Part shown: piece by piece, positions 8,168 to 16,099 of the stretch
Layout of the letters: each line of letters opens with the position of its first letter
Numbering within the stretch: the first letter of the stretch is position 1
Origin: Solirubrobacterales bacterium
Lineage (GTDB): Bacteria > Actinomycetota > Thermoleophilia > Solirubrobacterales > Solirubrobacteraceae
NCBI GenBank assembly: GCA_027315115.1
Contig: DAHUYQ010000028.1
Coordinates: 62,001 to 126,000, forward strand
Direction of reading: 5' to 3'
Length of the DNA: 64,000 nt
Program-made: the position numbers and the translations under genes
The notes under the pieces: generated by a model
The model's input: the letters and a program-made list of their open reading frames with translations, nothing else
Database searches by the model: none
Told to the model about the DNA's origin: nothing

Positions 8168-8224
8168 GTCGCCGCAGGCTACCGCCTTGGTCGGGCGGGG
8201 GCGAAATGCCGATGATCCACCACA

Positions 8225-8347: not shown

Positions 8348-10093
8348 ATGACCGTGGACTCGGCGACCAGGGCCGTCTTGGATCTTGCGCAGGGAGTACT
8401 CTCGGAGCTCGAGCTCGATGTCGTGCTCGACCGGGTGCTGGAGTCGGCGGTGCAGCTCACCGGCGCGCGGTATGCAGCCGTGGGCGTGCTCAGCGACACC
8501 AAGGACGAGCTTGCCCGCTTCATCACCAGGGGGATCGACGCCGATGCCCGGGCGGCTATAGGGCCGCTTCCCAAGGGCCGCGGCGTGCTCGGCGCGCTGA
8601 TCGAGAATCCCCGGGCGCTGCGCCTGGCCAACGTAGGCGAACACCCCCGCTCGTTCGGGTTCCCGCACGGGCATCCGCCGATGAAGAGCTTCCTCGGCGT
8701 GCCGATCGTGATCGACGACACGCCCTTCGGCAACCTGTACCTGACCGAGAAGGACGGCGGTCGCGAGTTCACCGATGCCGACGAGCAGGCGCTGACCGTG
8801 CTGGCGGAGTTCGCTGGCGTGGCGATCGACCACGCCAGGCGCTACACGGGCGCAAGAGAACGCCGCGACGAGCTGGAGCGCACCGTCGCGGCGCTCGAGG
8901 CGACGACGCAGTTCGCGCGCGCGGTCGGCGGCGAGACCGACATAGACGTGATTCTCGAGCTGGTCGCAAAGCGCGGACGGGCGCTGGTCTCGGCGCAGAT
9001 GCTGCTGATCGAGCTCATCGAGGGCGACGCCGTGCTGGTCGCCGCCGGGGCGGGCCAGCTACCAACCGGCCTGGTCGGCCAGCGCTTCCCGCTCGCTGGC
9101 ACCGCGGCCAGTCGCGCGATGCGCACCGGACAGATCCACCGGCTCGACCACGAGCTGGAACGAGCTCGGCTCAACGAGCGCGGCGTGGGCAGGCTGGGCG
9201 CGAAGGCCGAGTGCGGCCTCGTGGTCCCGCTCATCTTCCGCGGGGAGGCCTACGGAGTCCTGCTGGCGATCAACCGGCTGGATGGCGGTCCTGCCTTCGC
9301 CGCCCAGGACGAGCGGCTGCTGGAGGCCTTTGCCACCAGCGCCGCCACAGCGGTGGCGACCGCGCGATCGGTCGAGCGCCAGCGCCAGCGCCAGCGCCTG
9401 GGCGCCGCCGAGGTCGAGCGCAAGCGCTGGGCGCGCGAGCTGCACGACGAGACCCTCCAGAGCCTCGGCGCGCTGCGGCTCGAGCTGGCGCGAGCCGAGC
9501 GCTCCGGGCAGCCGCGGGAGCTGGAGGGCGCCGTCCACCAAGCGATCGACCTGCTGGAGGAGTCGATCGCAAACCTGCGCGCGCTGATCACCGACCTGCG
9601 ACCGGCCGCTCTGGACGAGCTCGGCGCCCAGGCCGCGATCGAAGCGCTGGCGCAGCGCAGCTCCCGGCATGGCGTCGAGGTGCAGATGAACATCGACTTG
9701 GCCTTCGAGCAGGGTCGCGCGAGCACCCGCCACGTCGCGGAGCTCGAGACGGCGCTCTACCGCATCGTCCAGGAGGCGCTGACTAATGCGGTCAAGCACG
9801 GCGAAGCCAAGCAGGCCACCGTGGAGATCAGCGAGGACGAGTCGACCGTCAGCGTCAGGATCCGCGACGACGGCAAGGGCTTCGACCCGAACATCGCCAG
9901 CGGGGGATTCGGGTTGATCGGGATGCGCGAGAGGGCGCAGGTGCTGGGTGGCGAGCTCTCGATCGTGGCGGCGCCCGACCGGGGCGCCTGCGTGCAGGTG
10001 AGCATCCCCGTCATGCGCCGAGCCGAGCAGGCGATGGAGCTGGAAGGCCAGCGCGGCCGCACGGGCGAGCGCGTGGCCTCCTCCGATCGGTGA
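8348..10093 (+). CDS. DevS/DosS-like GAF-GAF sensor histidine kinase
   Basis: A 581-residue soluble kinase with GAF1 (about 18-165), GAF2 (about 175-335), a HisKA_3 dimerisation domain with RELHDETLQ (His near 366) and an HATPase_c domain (about 465-560: N-box NAVKHG, G-box DDGKGF and GGFGLIGMRER). GAF1 closely resembles mycobacterial DevS/DosS (KGRGVLG, GFPHGHPPM, FLGVPIVIDD, FGNLYLTEK). The His of HPPM, near residue 109, aligns by eye with the haem-ligand region of DosS. A redox, oxygen or NO sensor is therefore possible but inferred. No response regulator is adjacent, so its partner lies elsewhere. Hsp20 and universal stress genes follow. Confidence 0.9.
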   Translation: MTVDSATRAVLDLAQGVLSELELDVVLDRVLESAVQLTGARYAAVGVLSDTKDELARFITRGIDADARAAIGPLPKGRGVLGALIENPRALRLANVGEHPRSFGFPHGHPPMKSFLGVPIVIDDTPFGNLYLTEKDGGREFTDADEQALTVLAEFAGVAIDHARRYTGARERRDELERTVAALEATTQFARAVGGETDIDVILELVAKRGRALVSAQMLLIELIEGDAVLVAAGAGQLPTGLVGQRFPLAGTAASRAMRTGQIHRLDHELERARLNERGVGRLGAKAECGLVVPLIFRGEAYGVLLAINRLDGGPAFAAQDERLLEAFATSAATAVATARSVERQRQRQRLGAAEVERKRWARELHDETLQSLGALRLELARAERSGQPRELEGAVHQAIDLLEESIANLRALITDLRPAALDELGAQAAIEALAQRSSRHGVEVQMNIDLAFEQGRASTRHVAELETALYRIVQEALTNAVKHGEAKQATVEISEDESTVSVRIRDDGKGFDPNIASGGFGLIGMRERAQVLGGELSIVAAPDRGACVQVSIPVMRRAEQAMELEGQRGRTGERVASSDR

Positions 10094-10195
10094 ACACTAC
10101 GGAGCGCTGACCGGGCGGCTCCCCGATGCGGCTGGCGGCCCCACGGACATACCTTGACGGCTACCACCGTTCCCCCGAACTGAGGAGCACACAAG

Positions 10196-10630
10196 ATGGC
10201 TGGAGCACTTACGCGATGGGAACCATTCGCAGAGCTCGGCGAGCTGCGGAGCCGGCTCGACCGCATGCTCGGAGAACTGACCGACGGCGAGCGCACATGG
10301 ATGCCCGCGATCGACGTCGAGCGCGACAACGGCAACCTCGTGGTGCGCGCGGACGTGCCGGGGATCAAGCCCGAGGAGGTCAAGATCGAGGTCCAGGACG
10401 ACATCCTCACGGTCTCCGGCGCCCACGAGGAGAGCAAGGAGACCAAGGACAAGCACTATCTGCGCCGCGAGCGCCGCTACGGGTCCTTCAGCCGCTCGAT
10501 GGCGCTGCCCACCGGCGTCGATCCCAAGAAGATCAAGGCCAAAACGCATGACGGCATCATCGAGGTGATGATCCCGCTGCCCACAGAGGCCAAGAAGGAA
10601 ACGGTCACCATCACCCCGACAGAAGGCTAG
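10196..10630 (+). CDS. Hsp20/alpha-crystallin small heat shock protein
   Basis: This 144-residue protein starts with the short N-terminal arm WEPFAELGELRSRLDRML. The alpha-crystallin domain spans about 35-135 (PAIDVERDNGNLVVRADVPGIKPEEVKIEV, then the YLRRERRYGSFSRSMALP strand) and the C-terminus carries an IPLP-type I-x-L motif. The family are ATP-independent holdase chaperones that form oligomers. The ATG at 10196 is preceded by a GAGGAGC-type ribosome binding site. The gene sits between the DevS-like kinase and a universal stress gene, a grouping reminiscent of mycobacterial dormancy genes. Confidence 0.95.
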   Translation: MAGALTRWEPFAELGELRSRLDRMLGELTDGERTWMPAIDVERDNGNLVVRADVPGIKPEEVKIEVQDDILTVSGAHEESKETKDKHYLRRERRYGSFSRSMALPTGVDPKKIKAKTHDGIIEVMIPLPTEAKKETVTITPTEG

Positions 10631-10650
10631 AGGCGATCGCAAAGCCAGCC

Positions 10651-10675
10651 GGGGCCGGCCTTCCCGGCCGGCCCC
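10651..10675 (+). terminator. GC-rich hairpin after hsp20
   Basis: GGGGCCGGCC and GGCCGGCCCC form a perfect 10-bp stem around TTCCC, starting 21 bases after the hsp20 stop. There is no T tract, so it is either an L-shaped actinobacterial-type terminator or an mRNA-stabilising hairpin. Confidence 0.6.
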
Positions 10676-10712
10676 GCAGGGTTGACAAGAGTAGATCAGT
10701 TTGACACGGATG

Positions 10713-10726
10713 CGAACATACGTTCG
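10713..10726. promoter_or_regulatory. LexA-type SOS box
   Basis: CGAACATACGTTCG fits the Gram-positive/actinobacterial LexA consensus CGAAC-RNNY-GTTCG at every fixed position. Two TTGACA motifs lie just upstream (10682-10687 and 10701-10706). The last base of the box is the first base of the GTG start at 10726, so LexA binding here would cover the transcription or translation start of the following operon. Confidence 0.7.
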
Positions 10727-11076
10727 TGTCACGACGAGATCGGCCCCCGCCGTCCCAACAAATCCCACGACCGCGAGTCCTGACCGCCCTGGAGCAGGGC
10801 GACCTGGAATGGCTGCGCCGCCATGCCCGGCAGCTTGCGCCGATGCGGCTCACCGACGCGCTGCGCATCTGCCTGATCGTGCGTGATCGTGAGCCACAGC
10901 TCTATGAGCGGGCGGCCGTTCGCTGGCTTGGCAGGTTCGCGCTGGAGGCGCCCAACCTCACGCTGGCCGATCTGAATCTCGCCGCCGAGGCGATCGAGAC
11001 GCTGCCGCGCGACGCGCAGAACGCGATGGAGCGGCTTTCGATCCTCTGCCGGCGCTACCGCCTGCCCGGCTGCTGA
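10726..11076 (+). CDS. Hypothetical protein under a LexA-type box
   Basis: A 116-residue soluble protein that I do not recognise. It has a basic, Pro-rich N-terminus (about 1-18) and then mostly helical sequence (LTALEQGDLEWLRRHARQLAPMRLTDALRICLIV, then ALEAPNLTLADLNLAAEAIETLP), ending with a CRRYRLPGC tail that has two cysteines. The GTG start overlaps the end of the SOS box. A leaderless transcript is possible because no ribosome binding site precedes it. Its stop lies two bases before the ATG of the kinase-like fusion gene at 11079, so both genes are probably one operon and both may be DNA-damage inducible. A start further downstream cannot be excluded. Confidence 0.7.
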   Translation: MSRRDRPPPSQQIPRPRVLTALEQGDLEWLRRHARQLAPMRLTDALRICLIVRDREPQLYERAAVRWLGRFALEAPNLTLADLNLAAEAIETLPRDAQNAMERLSILCRRYRLPGC

Positions 11077-11078
11077 GC

Positions 11079-12698
11079 ATGACGCCCCGCAAGCCTTCCA
11101 GGTCCACGAGCGACGATCTCCGGGAGGCGCTCGCCGATCCCGGCTTCTACCCCGGTCCGCCAAGCGAGGTGATCGTCCGCGAGAGCCACATATCTTGGGT
11201 GTTCCTCGCCGGCGACCGCGCGTACAAGCTCAAGAAGCCCGTGACCATGCCGTTCCTCGACTACGGAACGCCGGAGCGCAGACGGGCGATGTGCCAGGAG
11301 GAGGTGCGTCTCAACCGCGCGCTGGCCGGCGAGGTCTATCTCGGGGCGCGCGCGGTCGCCAAGGGAGCGGACGGGTACGAGCTGACCACCGAGGATGACC
11401 CGCGGGCGCTCGACTATCTCGTCGAGATGCGCCGCTTCGACGAGCGCGAGACGCTGGCCCGCCGACTGCGACGCGGCGAGGTCGGCGCGGCGGAGATCGC
11501 CGCGGTGGCCGCGCGGCTCGCGAGCTTTCACGAGCACGCCCGTCATGTGCGCTTCGACGGCGTCCCCTCGCTTGCGCTGGAGCGCCGCCTGGAGGAGAAC
11601 ATCCACGAGCTGCTGGGGATGGTCGAGCAGCGGGCCGAGATGGCGCGCATCTTCGCCCTGCAGCGACTCATGCGCGCCTTCCTGCTCGCCCACGCCTCGA
11701 TGCTCGACTCGCGGGCCTTCCGGGGTCTCACGCGCGAGGTGCACGGCGACGTGCGCGCCGTCCACGTGCTGCTGGAGGAGGAGGTGCAGATCCTCGACTG
11801 CGTCGAGTTCGACCGCAAGCTGCGGGAGCTCGACGTCGGCGAGGACCTGGCCTTCCTTGTGATGGACCTTGCCGCCCACGGCGGCGAGCGCTTCGCGCGG
11901 ACGCTGCTGGAGGCATACCGCCGGGCCGGCGGAGATCCCGGCGATGACCGGCTCATGGCCTTCTATGCGGTCAGCCGTGCGCTCGTGCGCGCGAAGGTGG
12001 AGTTGGCGCAAGCCGCGCAGCAGGCTCCCAAGAGCGCGGCCCACGGTCATCACAGCGCCGCCGCACGCGAGCTGCTTGCGCTTGCCGAGCGCTTTGCGTG
12101 GCAGGCGCGCCTGCCGCTGGCGATCGTCATCTGCGGCATGCCCGCCGCCGGCAAGTCCGAGCTTGCGAAGGTCTTGGCCGCGTCCTGCGGCCTTGCTCAT
12201 CTGAGCTCGGACGTGACCCGCAAGCAGCTTGCCGGCATCGAGCCTTCACATCGCGGCGGCGAAGAGCTCTACAGCAGGGGCTTCAGTGCGCTCACCTACG
12301 CGAAGCTCGGCGCACGAGCGGCGGCACAGGCGCGTGCGGACGGTGGCGTCCTGGTCGACGCGACCTTCCGGCGGCGCACCGAGCGCGATGCCTTCGCCGA
12401 GGCGTTCGCGGACGCGACGCCGCTGCTCTACGTGGAGTGCGTGGCGCCCGCGAGCGTGCTGGCGCGACGTGCGCGCACGCGGGAGGCGCAGCCGGACAGG
12501 ATCTCGGACGCGACCGCCGAGGTCGTGCGCGCGGAGGCCGACCGCTGGGAGCCGCTGGAGGAGGTGGACGGCGAGGCGCACATCACGCTGAGGACCGACC
12601 GATCGATCGAGGCGGTCCTCGGCGACCTGCTGGCACTGCTCGACCGGCGCATGGCCCTCAGCCGCGACGCCGACGCCGGCGGTGCGGCCAATTCCTGA
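11079..12698 (+). CDS. APH-like plus P-loop kinase (AAA_33) fusion protein
   Basis: A 539-residue protein with two parts. Residues 1-330 resemble the aminoglycoside-phosphotransferase/choline-kinase fold (VIVRESHISWVFLAGDRAYKLKKPV with the ATP-site Lys, then EVHGDVRAVHVLL and ILDCVEFDRKLRELDVGEDLAFLVMDL, the catalytic HGD and Mg-binding regions). Residues 345-530 are a P-loop kinase of the AAA_33 type with Walker A GMPAAGKS and a SSDVTRKQLAG segment. This COG2187-COG0645 style fusion is widespread but its substrate is unknown, and the antibiotic-resistance labels given to such proteins are not supported. It follows the SOS-box gene by two bases. Confidence 0.88.
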   Translation: MTPRKPSRSTSDDLREALADPGFYPGPPSEVIVRESHISWVFLAGDRAYKLKKPVTMPFLDYGTPERRRAMCQEEVRLNRALAGEVYLGARAVAKGADGYELTTEDDPRALDYLVEMRRFDERETLARRLRRGEVGAAEIAAVAARLASFHEHARHVRFDGVPSLALERRLEENIHELLGMVEQRAEMARIFALQRLMRAFLLAHASMLDSRAFRGLTREVHGDVRAVHVLLEEEVQILDCVEFDRKLRELDVGEDLAFLVMDLAAHGGERFARTLLEAYRRAGGDPGDDRLMAFYAVSRALVRAKVELAQAAQQAPKSAAHGHHSAAARELLALAERFAWQARLPLAIVICGMPAAGKSELAKVLAASCGLAHLSSDVTRKQLAGIEPSHRGGEELYSRGFSALTYAKLGARAAAQARADGGVLVDATFRRRTERDAFAEAFADATPLLYVECVAPASVLARRARTREAQPDRISDATAEVVRAEADRWEPLEEVDGEAHITLRTDRSIEAVLGDLLALLDRRMALSRDADAGGAANS

Positions 12699-12757
12699 GC
12701 GGATCGAGCAGTTCTCCTCGATGAGCTTGGTCCGCTCGCCGATCAGCATGAGTGACA

Positions 12758-12839
12758 GAGAGCGTGAGTGTTCCGCAGGGAACGACCGCCAAACCGGCCA
12801 GCGGCGGGCAGCCGCGATGCCGACGGCACTCACGCTCTC
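12758..12839. other. Large inverted repeat with cloverleaf-like folding, convergent spacer
   Basis: GAGAGCGTGAGTG at 12758-12770 is exactly complementary to 12827-12839. The 56-base interior can form three smaller stems: GTTCC/GGAAC (12770-12783), CCGCC/GGCGG (12786-12807) and GCCG/CGGC (12811-12827). It lies between the convergent ends of the kinase fusion gene and the coiled-coil gene, so it may be a shared terminator or a structured RNA. Nothing else is evident in 12699-12896. Confidence 0.55.
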
Positions 12840-12896
12840 CGCACGTGGGGGCACGCCGGCCTGGCGCCTCGCCTGGCGCCTCGCCCGCCGTCCGTG

Positions 12897-13145
12897 TCAG
12901 TGCCCGACCTGCTCGCGCTGGAGCCTGCGGACCTCCTCGAGCAGCCGGCGATTCTCGATGCGCAGACGGGCCGCGTGACGGCGAGCGCTCGCGGCCTCCT
13001 GGGCGAATGCCGAGAGGACGCCTCGCAGGTACTGCAGGCGATCCAGCAGTTGCTCCCGCTCGACGCTCGCGGAAGGAGCCTCCGGAGCTGCGTGCTGGAT
13101 GGTGGGCTGGATGGTGGGCGGGATTCCCCAATCTTCGATGCTCAT
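12897..13145 (-). CDS. Small coiled-coil hypothetical protein
   Basis: An 82-residue protein from the ATG at 13145 (MSIEDWGIPP). The C-terminal two thirds form a heptad-like basic coiled coil (VEREQLLDRLQYLRGVLSAFAQEAASARRHAARLRIENRRLLEEVRRLQRE), with a leucine-zipper spacing near the end. A short repeat (TIQPTIQ) comes from a duplicated DNA segment around 13097-13120. A longer start at GTG 13199 is open but less likely. The family is unknown to me. A bZIP-like DNA-binding or scaffold role would be guesswork. It is convergent with the kinase fusion. Confidence 0.55.
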   Translation of the reverse strand: MSIEDWGIPPTIQPTIQHAAPEAPSASVEREQLLDRLQYLRGVLSAFAQEAASARRHAARLRIENRRLLEEVRRLQREQVGH

Positions 13146-13327
13146 GGCAGCCCATGCTCGCGGTCGAGACGCAGGAAGGACATCCGAACGTCTTACCAAC
13201 CCCGCTCGGTGTGGACTACTGAGCGCTCTCCCCCATCCGTAGAAATCCCGACGCGGCTCCGGTCACTTCGCCGATGCGGCGCGCTCGGCCCAGACATAAG
13301 GTGGTCTGCATCGAGAAAGGAGAGGAG

Positions 13328-14197
13328 ATGTTCGAGAACGCGCTGGTCGGTGTGGACGGCAGGCAGGGCGGCCGCGACGGGGTCGCCCTCGCCTCGGCGC
13401 TGGTGGGTCAAGGCGCGAAGATCACTCTCCTGCACGTCCACGACGGCCTGCTGCGGCCCACCCACGCCGCGACCCCTGACATGGTCGAGGAGGAGCGCCG
13501 GCAGGCAATGCGACTGCTGGAGCAGGAATCCGCCGCAGCCGGGATCTCCGCGGAGCTGATGGAGGTCGAATCGCTGCGTCCTGGCCGGGTGCTGCATGAG
13601 CGGGCCGAGGAGCAGAGCGCCGATCTGATCGTGGTCGGATCCTGCCGGCACAGCGCCCTCGGGCGCGCGATGCTCGGTAACGACACTCGCGCGGCGCTCA
13701 ACGGCGCTCCCTGCGCCGTCGCGATCGCCTCCCTCGGCTTCGGGGCGCACCCGACTCTCGCGCGAATCGGCGTCGGCTACGACGAGTCCCCGGAGAGCAA
13801 GGCGGCGCTCGACGCGGCGCGCGATCTCGGCGCCGCGAAGGGCGCGACCGTCGAGGCGCTGGAGGTGATCTCGATACCGAGCCAGACGTACATGGGATTC
13901 ATCTCACCCGCCGCGCTGGAAGACATCGACGAAGACGTCAGGCAGACCGAGGAGCGGCTCTCGCGGCAACTCGAGGGCGTTCACGGCAGAGCGGTGTGGG
14001 GACTGGCCGGCGAGGAGCTTGCCTCCTTCGGGGACGATCTGGACCTGCTCGTGGTCGGCTCCCGCGGCTTCGGGCCGCTCAAGCGGATGATGCTGGGCAG
14101 CACAGCCGACTATCTGGAGCGCCACGCCCGCTGCTGCCTGCTCGTGCTGCCCAGGGTGGCGATCGAGGATCAGCTCGCGGCGGCCGGCGGCGCCTGA
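13328..14197 (+). CDS. Tandem-domain universal stress protein
   Basis: A 289-residue protein with two UspA domains (about 1-140 and 145-285). The first begins MFENALVGVDGRQGGRDGVALASAL and ends IVVGSCRHSALGRAMLGNDTRAALNGAPCAVAI. The second has IGVGYDESPESKAALDAA and VVGSRGFGPLKRMMLGSTADYLERHARCCLLVLP, the ATP-binding G-x2-G-x9-G(S/T) type motif. The ATG at 13328 follows AAAGGAGAGGAG, a strong ribosome binding site, and is preferred to the upstream frame from 13274. Tandem Usp proteins such as mycobacterial Rv2623 act in dormancy and growth control. This gene sits near hsp20 and a DevS-like kinase. Confidence 0.93.
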   Translation: MFENALVGVDGRQGGRDGVALASALVGQGAKITLLHVHDGLLRPTHAATPDMVEEERRQAMRLLEQESAAAGISAELMEVESLRPGRVLHERAEEQSADLIVVGSCRHSALGRAMLGNDTRAALNGAPCAVAIASLGFGAHPTLARIGVGYDESPESKAALDAARDLGAAKGATVEALEVISIPSQTYMGFISPAALEDIDEDVRQTEERLSRQLEGVHGRAVWGLAGEELASFGDDLDLLVVGSRGFGPLKRMMLGSTADYLERHARCCLLVLPRVAIEDQLAAAGGA

Positions 14198-15090
14198 AGG
14201 GAGCTCTCCAGCGAGGCCGCGCGCGTGCAAGGCGCCGCATGCGGCAGTGGATGGACGAGTCGCGCCGAGGTCGTGCTGAACACCGCCGGCCGGTCCCCGG
14301 GCAGCGCGGTCGCCGTGGAACGCGCGCAGCGCAGCCGCCGGCCGTCCTGATCTCGCCGCAGCAGATCGATCAGCGCGGCGTTGAGCTCGCTGTCGTCGAT
14401 CGGCTGCCGCGGCTCCAGCGCCCCGACCATCCGGTCGCGCAGACCGCCGGGAAGCGCACGCTCCAGCGGCAGCCACAGCTCCCGGGGCGCCGCGAGCGCG
14501 AGACGCTCGAACGGGCGGCGGGCGTGTGCGCGCGCCAGCATGCGCGCTAGTTGCTCCACGCGGTCGACCACGAGCTCTCGCACAGCCTGCGGGGCTGTCG
14601 ATGAAAAGGCGCGCGCCTGGGCCCCAGGCCGCATCGCGGGGGCGGCGACCGCGAACTCCACCAGCCCGGCGTGCCCGCCCCGTAGCAGCCGTGCCGCACG
14701 ACGATCGAGCACCGCGGCTCCCCAGTCGCCGGAGGTGAGCATGCCCGCGACAGGCTCGAGCCACGGGATCGTCTCGACGACGACCATCGCCTCCACTGGA
14801 GCAGGCAGCGGGACCATCGCGTAGGCGGAGCCTTCCGCCGCCGCGAAGAGCCCGACGCTCCGCGTACCGTGCGCCAGCGCCAGCGGCGTGCCAAGGCTCC
14901 TGCGCACCCGTTCACGATCGGCCCGCGCCGGCTGCTGATCGAGGTCCTCCACGAGCGACTCGAACTGATGCAGGCAGGCAACGGGCGATGCCGGGTCGAA
15001 GTCCAGGTAGACGCTCAGCACCGGCCGATCCGCAGCGGAGATGGCGGACAGCCGGGAGAGCGTGCCGAGACCCACTGCCGGAGGAGTCAC
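14170..15090 (-). CDS. eRF1-like (baeRF/Balon-type) protein, C-terminus atypical
   Basis: A 306-residue protein with the N-terminal pattern of bacterial aeRF1 homologues (DRPVLSVYLDFDP, then GLFAAAEGSAYAMVPLP and WGAAVLDRRAARLLRGGHAGL) and the central ELVVDRVEQLARMLAR-FERLALAAPRELW region. In this superfamily mycobacterial Rv2629 lies near dormancy genes, and Balon proteins are ribosome hibernation factors, so such a role is plausible. After about residue 248 the sequence loses family character and becomes Ser/Ala/Pro-rich. The protein is shorter than the usual 350-370 residues, which suggests a frameshift or truncation. The gene overlaps the universal stress gene tail to tail by 28 bases. 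Confidence 0.75.
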   Translation of the reverse strand: MTPPAVGLGTLSRLSAISAADRPVLSVYLDFDPASPVACLHQFESLVEDLDQQPARADRERVRRSLGTPLALAHGTRSVGLFAAAEGSAYAMVPLPAPVEAMVVVETIPWLEPVAGMLTSGDWGAAVLDRRAARLLRGGHAGLVEFAVAAPAMRPGAQARAFSSTAPQAVRELVVDRVEQLARMLARAHARRPFERLALAAPRELWLPLERALPGGLRDRMVGALEPRQPIDDSELNAALIDLLRRDQDGRRLRCARSTATALPGDRPAVFSTTSARLVHPLPHAAPCTRAASLESSLQAPPAAAS

Positions 15091-15600: not shown

Positions 15601-15841
15601 CGCATCAACGTCCCCGAACCGCGGCTACTAGCGCATCGCCTGCGCCCAAGTGCCACGTGTCGGAAACAGCCTGCTGAAACTTAACCGGGAGACCGCGCCG
15701 ACCGCATCGGTGTTTGTCACGGCGCATTCAGCAGCAAACTACGTGTCGTGCGACCTGCCGCGATGTCTTGACTTTGCATACACCGAGGCGTCAGCGGGTA
15801 TTTCTGTAAGGAGCGCGCGGCAAACCCAGGGAGGCAGGCAG

Positions 15842-16099
15842 ATGCCATACATCCATTGCGAGCGATGCGGGACGAGCTGCTACAGCAACGTGCTGAGCTG
15901 CCCCAAATGCCGGGCGCCGGTCGATCGCGTCTATGCCCAGGCCACGCTGTCCGGCAAGCTGCCTTCCTCCACCGGAGACGAAGACGTCGAGCACGAAGTG
16001 CGCGACGCCCTATACGGCTGGCATTCCGGTTGTGTGGCGATGCGTCACGTGGGGCCCGCTGCCGAGCGCGAGACGACCAGCCGCAGCGCGCCTTCGTAG
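15842..16099 (+). CDS. Small zinc-ribbon protein
   Basis: An 85-residue protein beginning MPYIHCERCGTSCYSN and continuing LSCPKCRAPVDRVY: a CxxC-x(n)-CxxC zinc ribbon of the kind found in small actinobacterial proteins of unknown function. The ATG at 15842 follows GGGAGGCAGGCAG, a good ribosome binding site. The frame stays open upstream to 15650, but that part is non-protein-like. The 3' end overlaps the convergent methyltransferase gene by 55 bases. A role in nucleic-acid or protein binding is possible. Confidence 0.7.
   Translation: MPYIHCERCGTSCYSNVLSCPKCRAPVDRVYAQATLSGKLPSSTGDEDVEHEVRDALYGWHSGCVAMRHVGPAAERETTSRSAPS

What the first reader, a model, noticed from the sequence alone, without database searches (positions are those of the whole stretch)
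8348..15090. Dormancy-like block: DevS-type kinase, Hsp20, tandem Usp and eRF1/Balon-type protein within 7 kb
The DevS/DosS-like kinase (8348), alpha-crystallin (10196), tandem universal stress protein (13328) and aeRF1-like protein (14170) are homologues of separate members of the mycobacterial DosR dormancy regulon and its neighbours (DosS, HspX, Rv2623, Rv2629). Here they lie close together and with no response regulator. They could form a compact hypoxia or stationary-phase stress and ribosome hibernation module. The grouping is visible in the sequence; the shared regulation is inference.
Basis: partly seen in the sequence, partly recalled or inferred. Interest (0 to 1): 0.75.

Follow-up and report, generated by a model that had tools for sequence, protein, structure and literature searches.

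The report
Scattered low-oxygen stress regulon, new box
In a soil bacterium distantly related to the tuberculosis bacillus, a kinase resembling its oxygen-sensing dormancy kinases sits beside stress genes, two of which carry a DNA switch shared with similar clusters in dozens of relatives, pointing to a low-oxygen stress programme whose DNA switch differs from the known ones.

Summary
The four genes are real. The kinase keeps the DosS/DosT haem ligands (His149- and Tyr171-equivalents, with DosT-like Gly at Glu87).

Exact gene order is not conserved. The gene pool is: across Solirubrobacterales, DosS-like kinases sit near Usp, NarL-type regulator, flavin-oxidoreductase and AAA_33 genes far above control stretches. 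This genome has a second, larger island on another contig, with a second DosS-like kinase and a response regulator.

De novo searches on four gene classes converged on one box, caTCCGTAGTTnnCCGC. It held up in 65 unseen loci and sits preferentially at -74 to -79. In the window it precedes Hsp20 (18.1 bits, above all controls) and Usp (13.4 and 12.0). It is not the published DosR, OsdR or PolR box.

The eRF1-like protein belongs to the Balon-related superfamily but has lost the GGW loop and C-domain, has no box and is not clustered in relatives. Full-length Balon-like genes elsewhere, including this genome's, do carry boxes.

Verdict: shared regulation is supported for Hsp20 and Usp, inferred for the kinase, and not supported for eRF1 or AAA_33. 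The regulator, and induction by hypoxia, remain inferred.

The parts
8348..10093 (+). DosS/DosT-like sensor histidine kinase, 581 aa: GAF-A, GAF-B, HisKA_3, HATPase_c; G46, H109 and Y131 correspond to DosS E87, H149 and Y171
8195..8215 (-). borderline box (11.0 bits) between the divergent acyl-CoA dehydrogenase and the kinase; not claimed
10086..10106 (-). regulon box CGCTCCGTAGTGTTCACCGAT, starting 110 bp before the Hsp20 start; 18.1 bits with a matrix trained without this genome (max of 266 control upstreams 11.5)
   Evidence: one of only two exact TCMGTASTNNNCMCCG matches in the genome
10196..10630 (+). Hsp20 / alpha-crystallin small heat-shock protein, 144 aa
10713..10726 (.). perfect LexA-type SOS box CGAACATACGTTCG; the same pattern precedes a DnaE2-like polymerase gene and uvrA in this genome
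10726..11076 (+). ORF of 116 aa, no family; true start may lie further in, as the SOS box touches the GTG
11079..12698 (+). 539-aa protein with C-terminal AAA_33 P-loop domain (probable Rv2004c-type, from memory); recurrently near DosS-like kinases
12897..13145 (-). 82-aa ORF, no family; possible small protein
13205..13225 (-). regulon box CGCTCAGTAGTCCACACCGAG before Usp (13.4 bits)
13233..13253 (+). second regulon box CCATCCGTAGAAATCCCGACG before Usp (12.0 bits)
13328..14197 (+). tandem universal stress protein, two Usp domains, 289 aa
14170..15090 (-). short, diverged baeRF-family (Balon-related) protein: GGW loop and C-domain lost; no regulon box (5.1 bits)
15704..15724 (+). candidate box GCATCGGTGTTTGTCACGGCG (12.7 bits), first of a pair before the ORF at 15842
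15728..15748 (-). candidate box CGACACGTAGTTTGCTGCTGA (11.7 bits), second of the pair
15842..16099 (+). 85-aa cysteine-pair (CxxC) small ORF, no Pfam family; possible further regulon member

Best explanation
The block is one outpost of a scattered DosS/DosR-like low-oxygen stress regulon of Solirubrobacterales. The window kinase is a DosT-like haem-GAF histidine kinase. Inferred: when O2 falls it autophosphorylates and passes the phosphate to an unlinked NarL-family response regulator, most likely the strongly conserved one on contig C38 (L001:11668-12366). Inferred: the phosphorylated regulator binds the asymmetric box caTCCGTAGTTnnCCGC and activates Hsp20 and Usp here, and Usp, flavin-oxidoreductase, regulator, kinase, cytochrome bd and some full-length Balon-like genes elsewhere. 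The gene content resembles the DosR/OsdR regulons but the DNA box is different. The short eRF1-like gene and the LexA-boxed 116-aa/AAA_33 unit are neighbours, not shown members of this regulon in this genome. Shown: the genes, the haem-pocket residues, the box, its enrichment and its position. Inferred: which regulator binds it, the signal, and the direction of the response.
For: GAF-A homology and ligand residues conserved in both kinases of the genome, residue roles per PMC4082495. Kinase neighbourhoods against controls: Usp 18/31 against 0/20, RR 24/31 against 3/20, flavin oxidoreductase 17/31 against 0/20, AAA_33 7/31 against 0/20. De novo motifs from RR, Usp, kinase and oxidoreductase upstreams, each run alone, converge; pooled LLR 180 against 49-62 for shuffles. 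Leave-one-genome-out. In 65 loci unused in training, sites above the 99% control level: RR 21/51 (p=5e-16), Usp 12/41 (2e-9), kinase 10/57 (3e-6), oxidoreductase 8/32 (1e-6), GNAT 4/11; 21 of 61 sites start at -74 to -79, 2 expected. Hsp20 upstreams were not in the training set: 9 of the 12 closest orthologues exceed the 95% level. Exact pattern TCMGTAGTTNNCCSC over 61 genomes: 21 matches against 4 for the reversed control, among them cydA at -77, a regulator, kinases, oxidoreductases and a Balon-like gene. The RR orthologue is 81-89% identical in most of the genus with a recognition-helix segment LSVRTVETHR..IQQKL nearly unchanged across the genomes where it was printed.
Against: No binding, expression or phosphotransfer data. 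The C38 regulator is closer to NarL and VraR than to DevR by phmmer, and several of its orthologues have no box in their own promoter. Only 30-40% of candidate promoters have a strong box. The window kinase's own upstream site is borderline (11.0 bits, 8195-8215) and the C38 Usp genes show no strong box. Other genes in the test loci exceed the threshold in 16/395 cases, more than the 1% of the controls. Neighbourhoods are phylogenetically related, so p-values are optimistic; start codons were assigned by rule.
Confidence: 0.62

Rival explanations
1. The box is real but is read by another regulator (another NarL-type regulator, a general stress regulator or an alternative sigma factor), and the DosS-like kinase is only a physical neighbour.
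For: Each genome has many GerE proteins (17 matches here) and several RR paralogues. The box reads in both orientations and is asymmetric. G008 has strong boxes but no kinase at E<=1e-90.
Against: The box is most frequent before the regulators beside these kinases (21/51) and before the kinases themselves. The RR orthologue is present in G008, and most genomes with exact pattern matches have it. A position near -76 and use in both orientations argue against a sigma-factor element.
Confidence: 0.25
2. One reading: a compact, self-contained hypoxia and ribosome-hibernation module including the eRF1/Balon-type gene.
For: The genes lie within 7 kb. Balon genes are often beside stress genes such as Hsp20 (PMC10901736). 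In G023 a full-length Balon-like gene is next to an Hsp20 77% identical to the window's.
Against: The window copy lacks the GGW loop and C-domain and a box, and no other kinase neighbourhood of the first set holds it (1/31, the window itself). In G022 a full-length relative sits beside rpiA without the block.
Confidence: 0.06
3. Chance or generic clustering of stress genes without shared control.
For: Order is not conserved. The 116-aa/AAA_33 unit has its own LexA-type box, so the block mixes regulatory inputs.
Against: Usp, RR, oxidoreductase and AAA_33 enrichment near these kinases, AAA_33 within about 16 kb of a DosS-like kinase in 9 of 14 cases, and the shared box.
Confidence: 0.07

Closest known systems
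DosS-DosT/DosR dormancy system of Mycobacterium tuberculosis
   Same: Haem-GAF kinase with the same proximal His and distal Tyr; Usp and Hsp20 among likely targets; NarL-family response regulator
   Different: Regulator unlinked to the window kinase; box caTCCGTAGTTnnCCGC instead of the DosR palindrome; Balon-like, cytochrome bd and flavin-oxidoreductase genes carry the box in relatives
OsdK/OsdR of Streptomyces coelicolor (PMC5069765)
   Same: DosT-type kinase, regulator, several Usp genes and an alcohol dehydrogenase in one region, like the C38 island
   Different: OsdR box is the palindrome AGGGCCGATCGGCCCT; that pattern is not enriched here
PolS/PolR of Microlunatus phosphovorus (PMC6754071)
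   Same: DevS/DevR-like system with a divergent DNA box, precedent for rewired specificity
   Different: PolR box is GTTCACnnnnnGTTCaC with phosphate-metabolism targets
Balon / Rv2629 / MSMEG_1130 ribosome hibernation factors (PMC10901736)
   Same: The wider protein family matches MSMEG_1130 (2.5e-31) and Rv2629 (7e-16) as a profile
   Different: The window copy lacks the C-domain; full-length relatives keep a GGW loop at the GGQ position whereas Balon lacks GGQ

Membership tests
DosS/DosT haem-GAF kinase | N-terminal GAF-A homologous to DosS/DosT | tested here: met
   DosT 1.2e-40, DevS 1e-37
DosS/DosT haem-GAF kinase | Proximal His149 and distal Tyr171 equivalents | tested here: met
   (H109, Y131); roles from PMC4082495
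DosS/DosT haem-GAF kinase | HisKA_3 + HATPase_c transmitter | tested here: met
DosS/DosT haem-GAF kinase | Haem binding and gas-dependent autophosphorylation | not testable with these tools
   needs purified protein
DosR/OsdR regulon | Regulator gene next to the kinase | tested here: not met
   none among the genes of the window block; present on C38 and beside orthologous kinases in G018 and G016
DosR/OsdR regulon | DosR or OsdR palindromic box before members | tested here: not met
   not enriched against controls; de novo search gives a different box
DosR/OsdR regulon | Common induction by hypoxia through the regulator | not testable with these tools
   needs RNA-seq and a regulator mutant
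Solirubrobacterales TCCGTAGTT regulon (defined here) | Box before the gene above all controls | tested here: met
   Hsp20 18.1 bits and Usp 13.4 bits against a maximum of 11.5 in 266 control upstreams; kinase borderline; eRF1 and AAA_33 not met
Balon hibernation factor | aeRF1-like N and M domains of the Balon-related family | tested here: inconclusive
   alignable to the family over residues 1-226, Pfam below cut-off
Balon hibernation factor | C-domain that engages EF-Tu | tested here: not met
   absent in the window copy
Balon hibernation factor | Ribosomal A-site binding | not testable with these tools
   needs cryo-EM or binding assay
Rv2004c-type protein | C-terminal AAA_33 P-loop domain | tested here: met
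   5.3e-24
Rv2004c-type protein | Direct sequence match to Rv2004c | not tested
   resemblance recalled; no mycobacterial protein was compared

The most novel reading that the evidence does not exclude
Solirubrobacterales keep a DosS/DosR-like low-oxygen regulon whose kinase haem pocket and target repertoire (Usp, Hsp20, flavin oxidoreductases, cytochrome bd, full-length Balon-like hibernation factors) resemble the mycobacterial one while regulator and DNA box differ entirely; the control is trans-acting and spread over several islands, with the window block as one of them.
Probability: 0.45. Interest if true: 0.68.

Novelty: new variant of a known kind. Interest (0 to 1): 0.57.

Why it matters
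It would extend oxygen-sensing dormancy control by haem-GAF kinases to a deep, mostly uncultured actinobacterial lineage of soils, show how such a regulon can keep its genes while its DNA code differs, and give a ready search key (the box) for stress and hibernation genes in genomes where most are unannotated. Box-bearing relatives with named strains (Conexibacter sp. DBS9H8, Patulibacter medicamentivorans) make it testable.

Tried and rejected
DosR (GGGAC-N4-6-GTCCC) and OsdR (GGGCC-N4-GGCCC) palindromes near kinases: no enrichment. De novo search for palindromic boxes: nothing above controls, which scored higher because of coding sequence. Alignment of the upstream regions of the kinase orthologues: no conserved block. 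Conserved gene order in orthologues: rejected. Balon function for the window eRF1-like ORF: rejected on missing C-domain; a frameshift rescue was looked for and no C-domain was seen in the other frames. Shared box before AAA_33: not found in this genome (1.7 bits) and rare elsewhere. First extraction of the eRF1 relatives ignored locus orientation and was redone; a first scan script stopped on a short sequence and was rerun.
Full report
1. Observation. The window is bases 62001-126000 of contig C10 of a 3.3-Mb draft genome. Its nearest named relatives are Solirubrobacteraceae and other Solirubrobacterales. The four genes are present at the stated places. The kinase GAF-A matches solved DosT at 1.2e-40 and DevS at about 1e-37. 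Aligned to DevS, it keeps His149 (H109) and Tyr171 (Y131) and has Gly at Glu87 (G46), as DosT has. The review PMC4082495 gives His149 as proximal ligand, Tyr171 as ligand discriminator, and Glu87/Gly85 as the DosS/DosT difference. The second kinase of the genome, on C38, has the same residues. Haem binding itself is untested.

2. What was missed. Gene 11079-12698 has a C-terminal AAA_33 domain. From memory it resembles Rv2004c, itself a DosR-regulon gene (PMC5483032), but no direct comparison was run. A second, larger island lies on C38: acetate kinase, phosphoketolase, Usp, a NarL-type regulator, more Usp, GNAT, histone-deacetylase-type protein, alcohol dehydrogenase, a flavin oxidoreductase, a DosS-like kinase 47% identical to the window's, and trehalose synthase. 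So the genome does have a candidate regulator; it is only unlinked.

3. Conservation. Orthologous kinases (62-66%) occur in five relatives of the genus, next to a regulator, Usp, GNAT and HDAC genes in G018 and a regulator in G016, but never in the window's order. In 31 DosS-like kinase neighbourhoods against 20 control stretches: Usp 18 against 0, regulator 24 against 3, flavin oxidoreductase 17 against 0, AAA_33 7 against 0, Hsp20 2 against 0, eRF1-like 1 (the window) against 0. AAA_33 genes lie within about 16 kb of a DosS-like kinase in 9 of 14 cases, p about 4e-15. Hsp20 and AAA_33 are neighbours in G017. The gene pool is conserved, the order is fluid.

4. A shared promoter box. Motif discovery run separately on upstream regions of regulator, Usp, kinase and oxidoreductase genes gave the same element each time, pooled as caTCCGTAGTTnnCCGC. 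With a matrix trained without this genome, the site before the window Hsp20 scores 18.1 bits and those before Usp 13.4 and 12.0; the highest of 266 control upstreams is 11.5. An exact form of the Hsp20 and Usp sites, TCMGTASTNNNCMCCG, occurs nowhere else in the genome; with one mismatch the pattern is not above its control, so this only shows that the two sites resemble each other. In 65 loci not used for training, sites above the 99% control level precede 21/51 regulators, 12/41 Usp, 10/57 kinases, 8/32 oxidoreductases and 4/11 GNAT genes against 3/266 controls, and 21 of 61 sites start at -74 to -79. Hsp20 was not in the training set, yet 9 of its 12 closest orthologues exceed the 95% level. 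An unbiased exact search over 61 genomes gave 21 matches against 4 for the reversed pattern; several precede cydA (at -77), a regulator, kinases, oxidoreductases and a Balon-like gene, while others fall inside coding sequence.

5. The regulator. The C38 regulator has orthologues of 61-89% identity in most of the 61 genomes and a nearly constant recognition-helix segment. It is the best candidate for the protein that reads the box, but that is inference: phmmer places it nearer NarL and VraR than DevR, and many of its orthologues lack a box of their own.

6. The eRF1-like gene. As a profile, its full-length relatives match Balon MSMEG_1130 (2.5e-31) and Rv2629 (7e-16). They carry GGWSQARYQR at the GGQ position and a C-terminal domain, often with cysteine pairs; the window copy and a few short relatives in the genus lack both. 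Balon uses its C-domain to engage EF-Tu (PMC10901736), so the window protein should not be called Balon. It has no box (5.1 bits). By contrast full-length relatives in G008 (23.4 bits), G029, G007, G021 and this genome's own C35 copy (14.3 bits) have one. In G022 a full-length relative sits beside rpiA, which in the window lies upstream of the block, so the block and this gene may have become neighbours by insertion (inference).

7. Mixed inputs. A perfect LexA-type box (10713-10726) precedes the 116-aa ORF and AAA_33 gene; the same pattern precedes a DnaE2-like polymerase gene and uvrA in this genome. The block is therefore not one regulatory unit.

8. Known systems. The nearest are DosS/DosT-DosR, OsdK/OsdR (box AGGGCCGATCGGCCCT) and PolS/PolR (box GTTCACnnnnnGTTCaC). 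None has the box found here; one search of held papers for its core gave nothing relevant and one for DosR in Solirubrobacter gave none. These searches cover open papers only.

9. Limits. No expression or binding data. Neighbourhoods are related by descent, so p-values overstate independence. Gene starts were set by rule. Other genes in the test loci exceed the threshold more often (16/395) than controls (1%), either because of unrecognised members or composition. The genome is a draft, 91% complete.

Noticed in passing
window 10713-10726: Perfect LexA-type box CGAACATACGTTCG, the only one in the window; 11 such sites in the genome (reversed control 16), among them before a DnaE2-like polymerase gene and uvrA.
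   Followed up: partly
L001 and L002 (G000:C38:30001-70000): Second, larger DosS-like island with phosphoketolase, acetate kinase, several Usp, GNAT, histone-deacetylase-type, flavin-oxidoreductase, trehalose synthase and NarL-type regulator genes, plus a stand-alone GerE ORF of 83 aa beside the kinase.
   Followed up: partly
window 15704-15748 and 15842-16099: A pair of candidate boxes before a small ORF with CxxC pairs and no family; possible extra regulon member.
   Followed up: no
L005, L006, L007 and window 14170-15090: A group of short baeRF-family proteins without GGW loop, the complete ones also without C-domain (L005 is cut by its contig end), kept at 37-48% identity to the window copy in the genus; function unknown.
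   Followed up: partly
L207 (G018:C85): Cytochrome bd oxidase subunit I gene with the box at -77, the same position as in regulator promoters.
   Followed up: yes
G000:C23:15056-15502: Separate short ORF with a DosS-like GAF-A domain (43% identical) without transmitter.
   Followed up: no
G000:C5:33942-35732: A regulator gene next to a kinase that matches only from GAF-B onward, a possible sister two-component pair.
   Followed up: no
L029 and L130 (G023:C136): Full-length Balon-like gene next to an Hsp20 77% identical to the window's.
   Followed up: no
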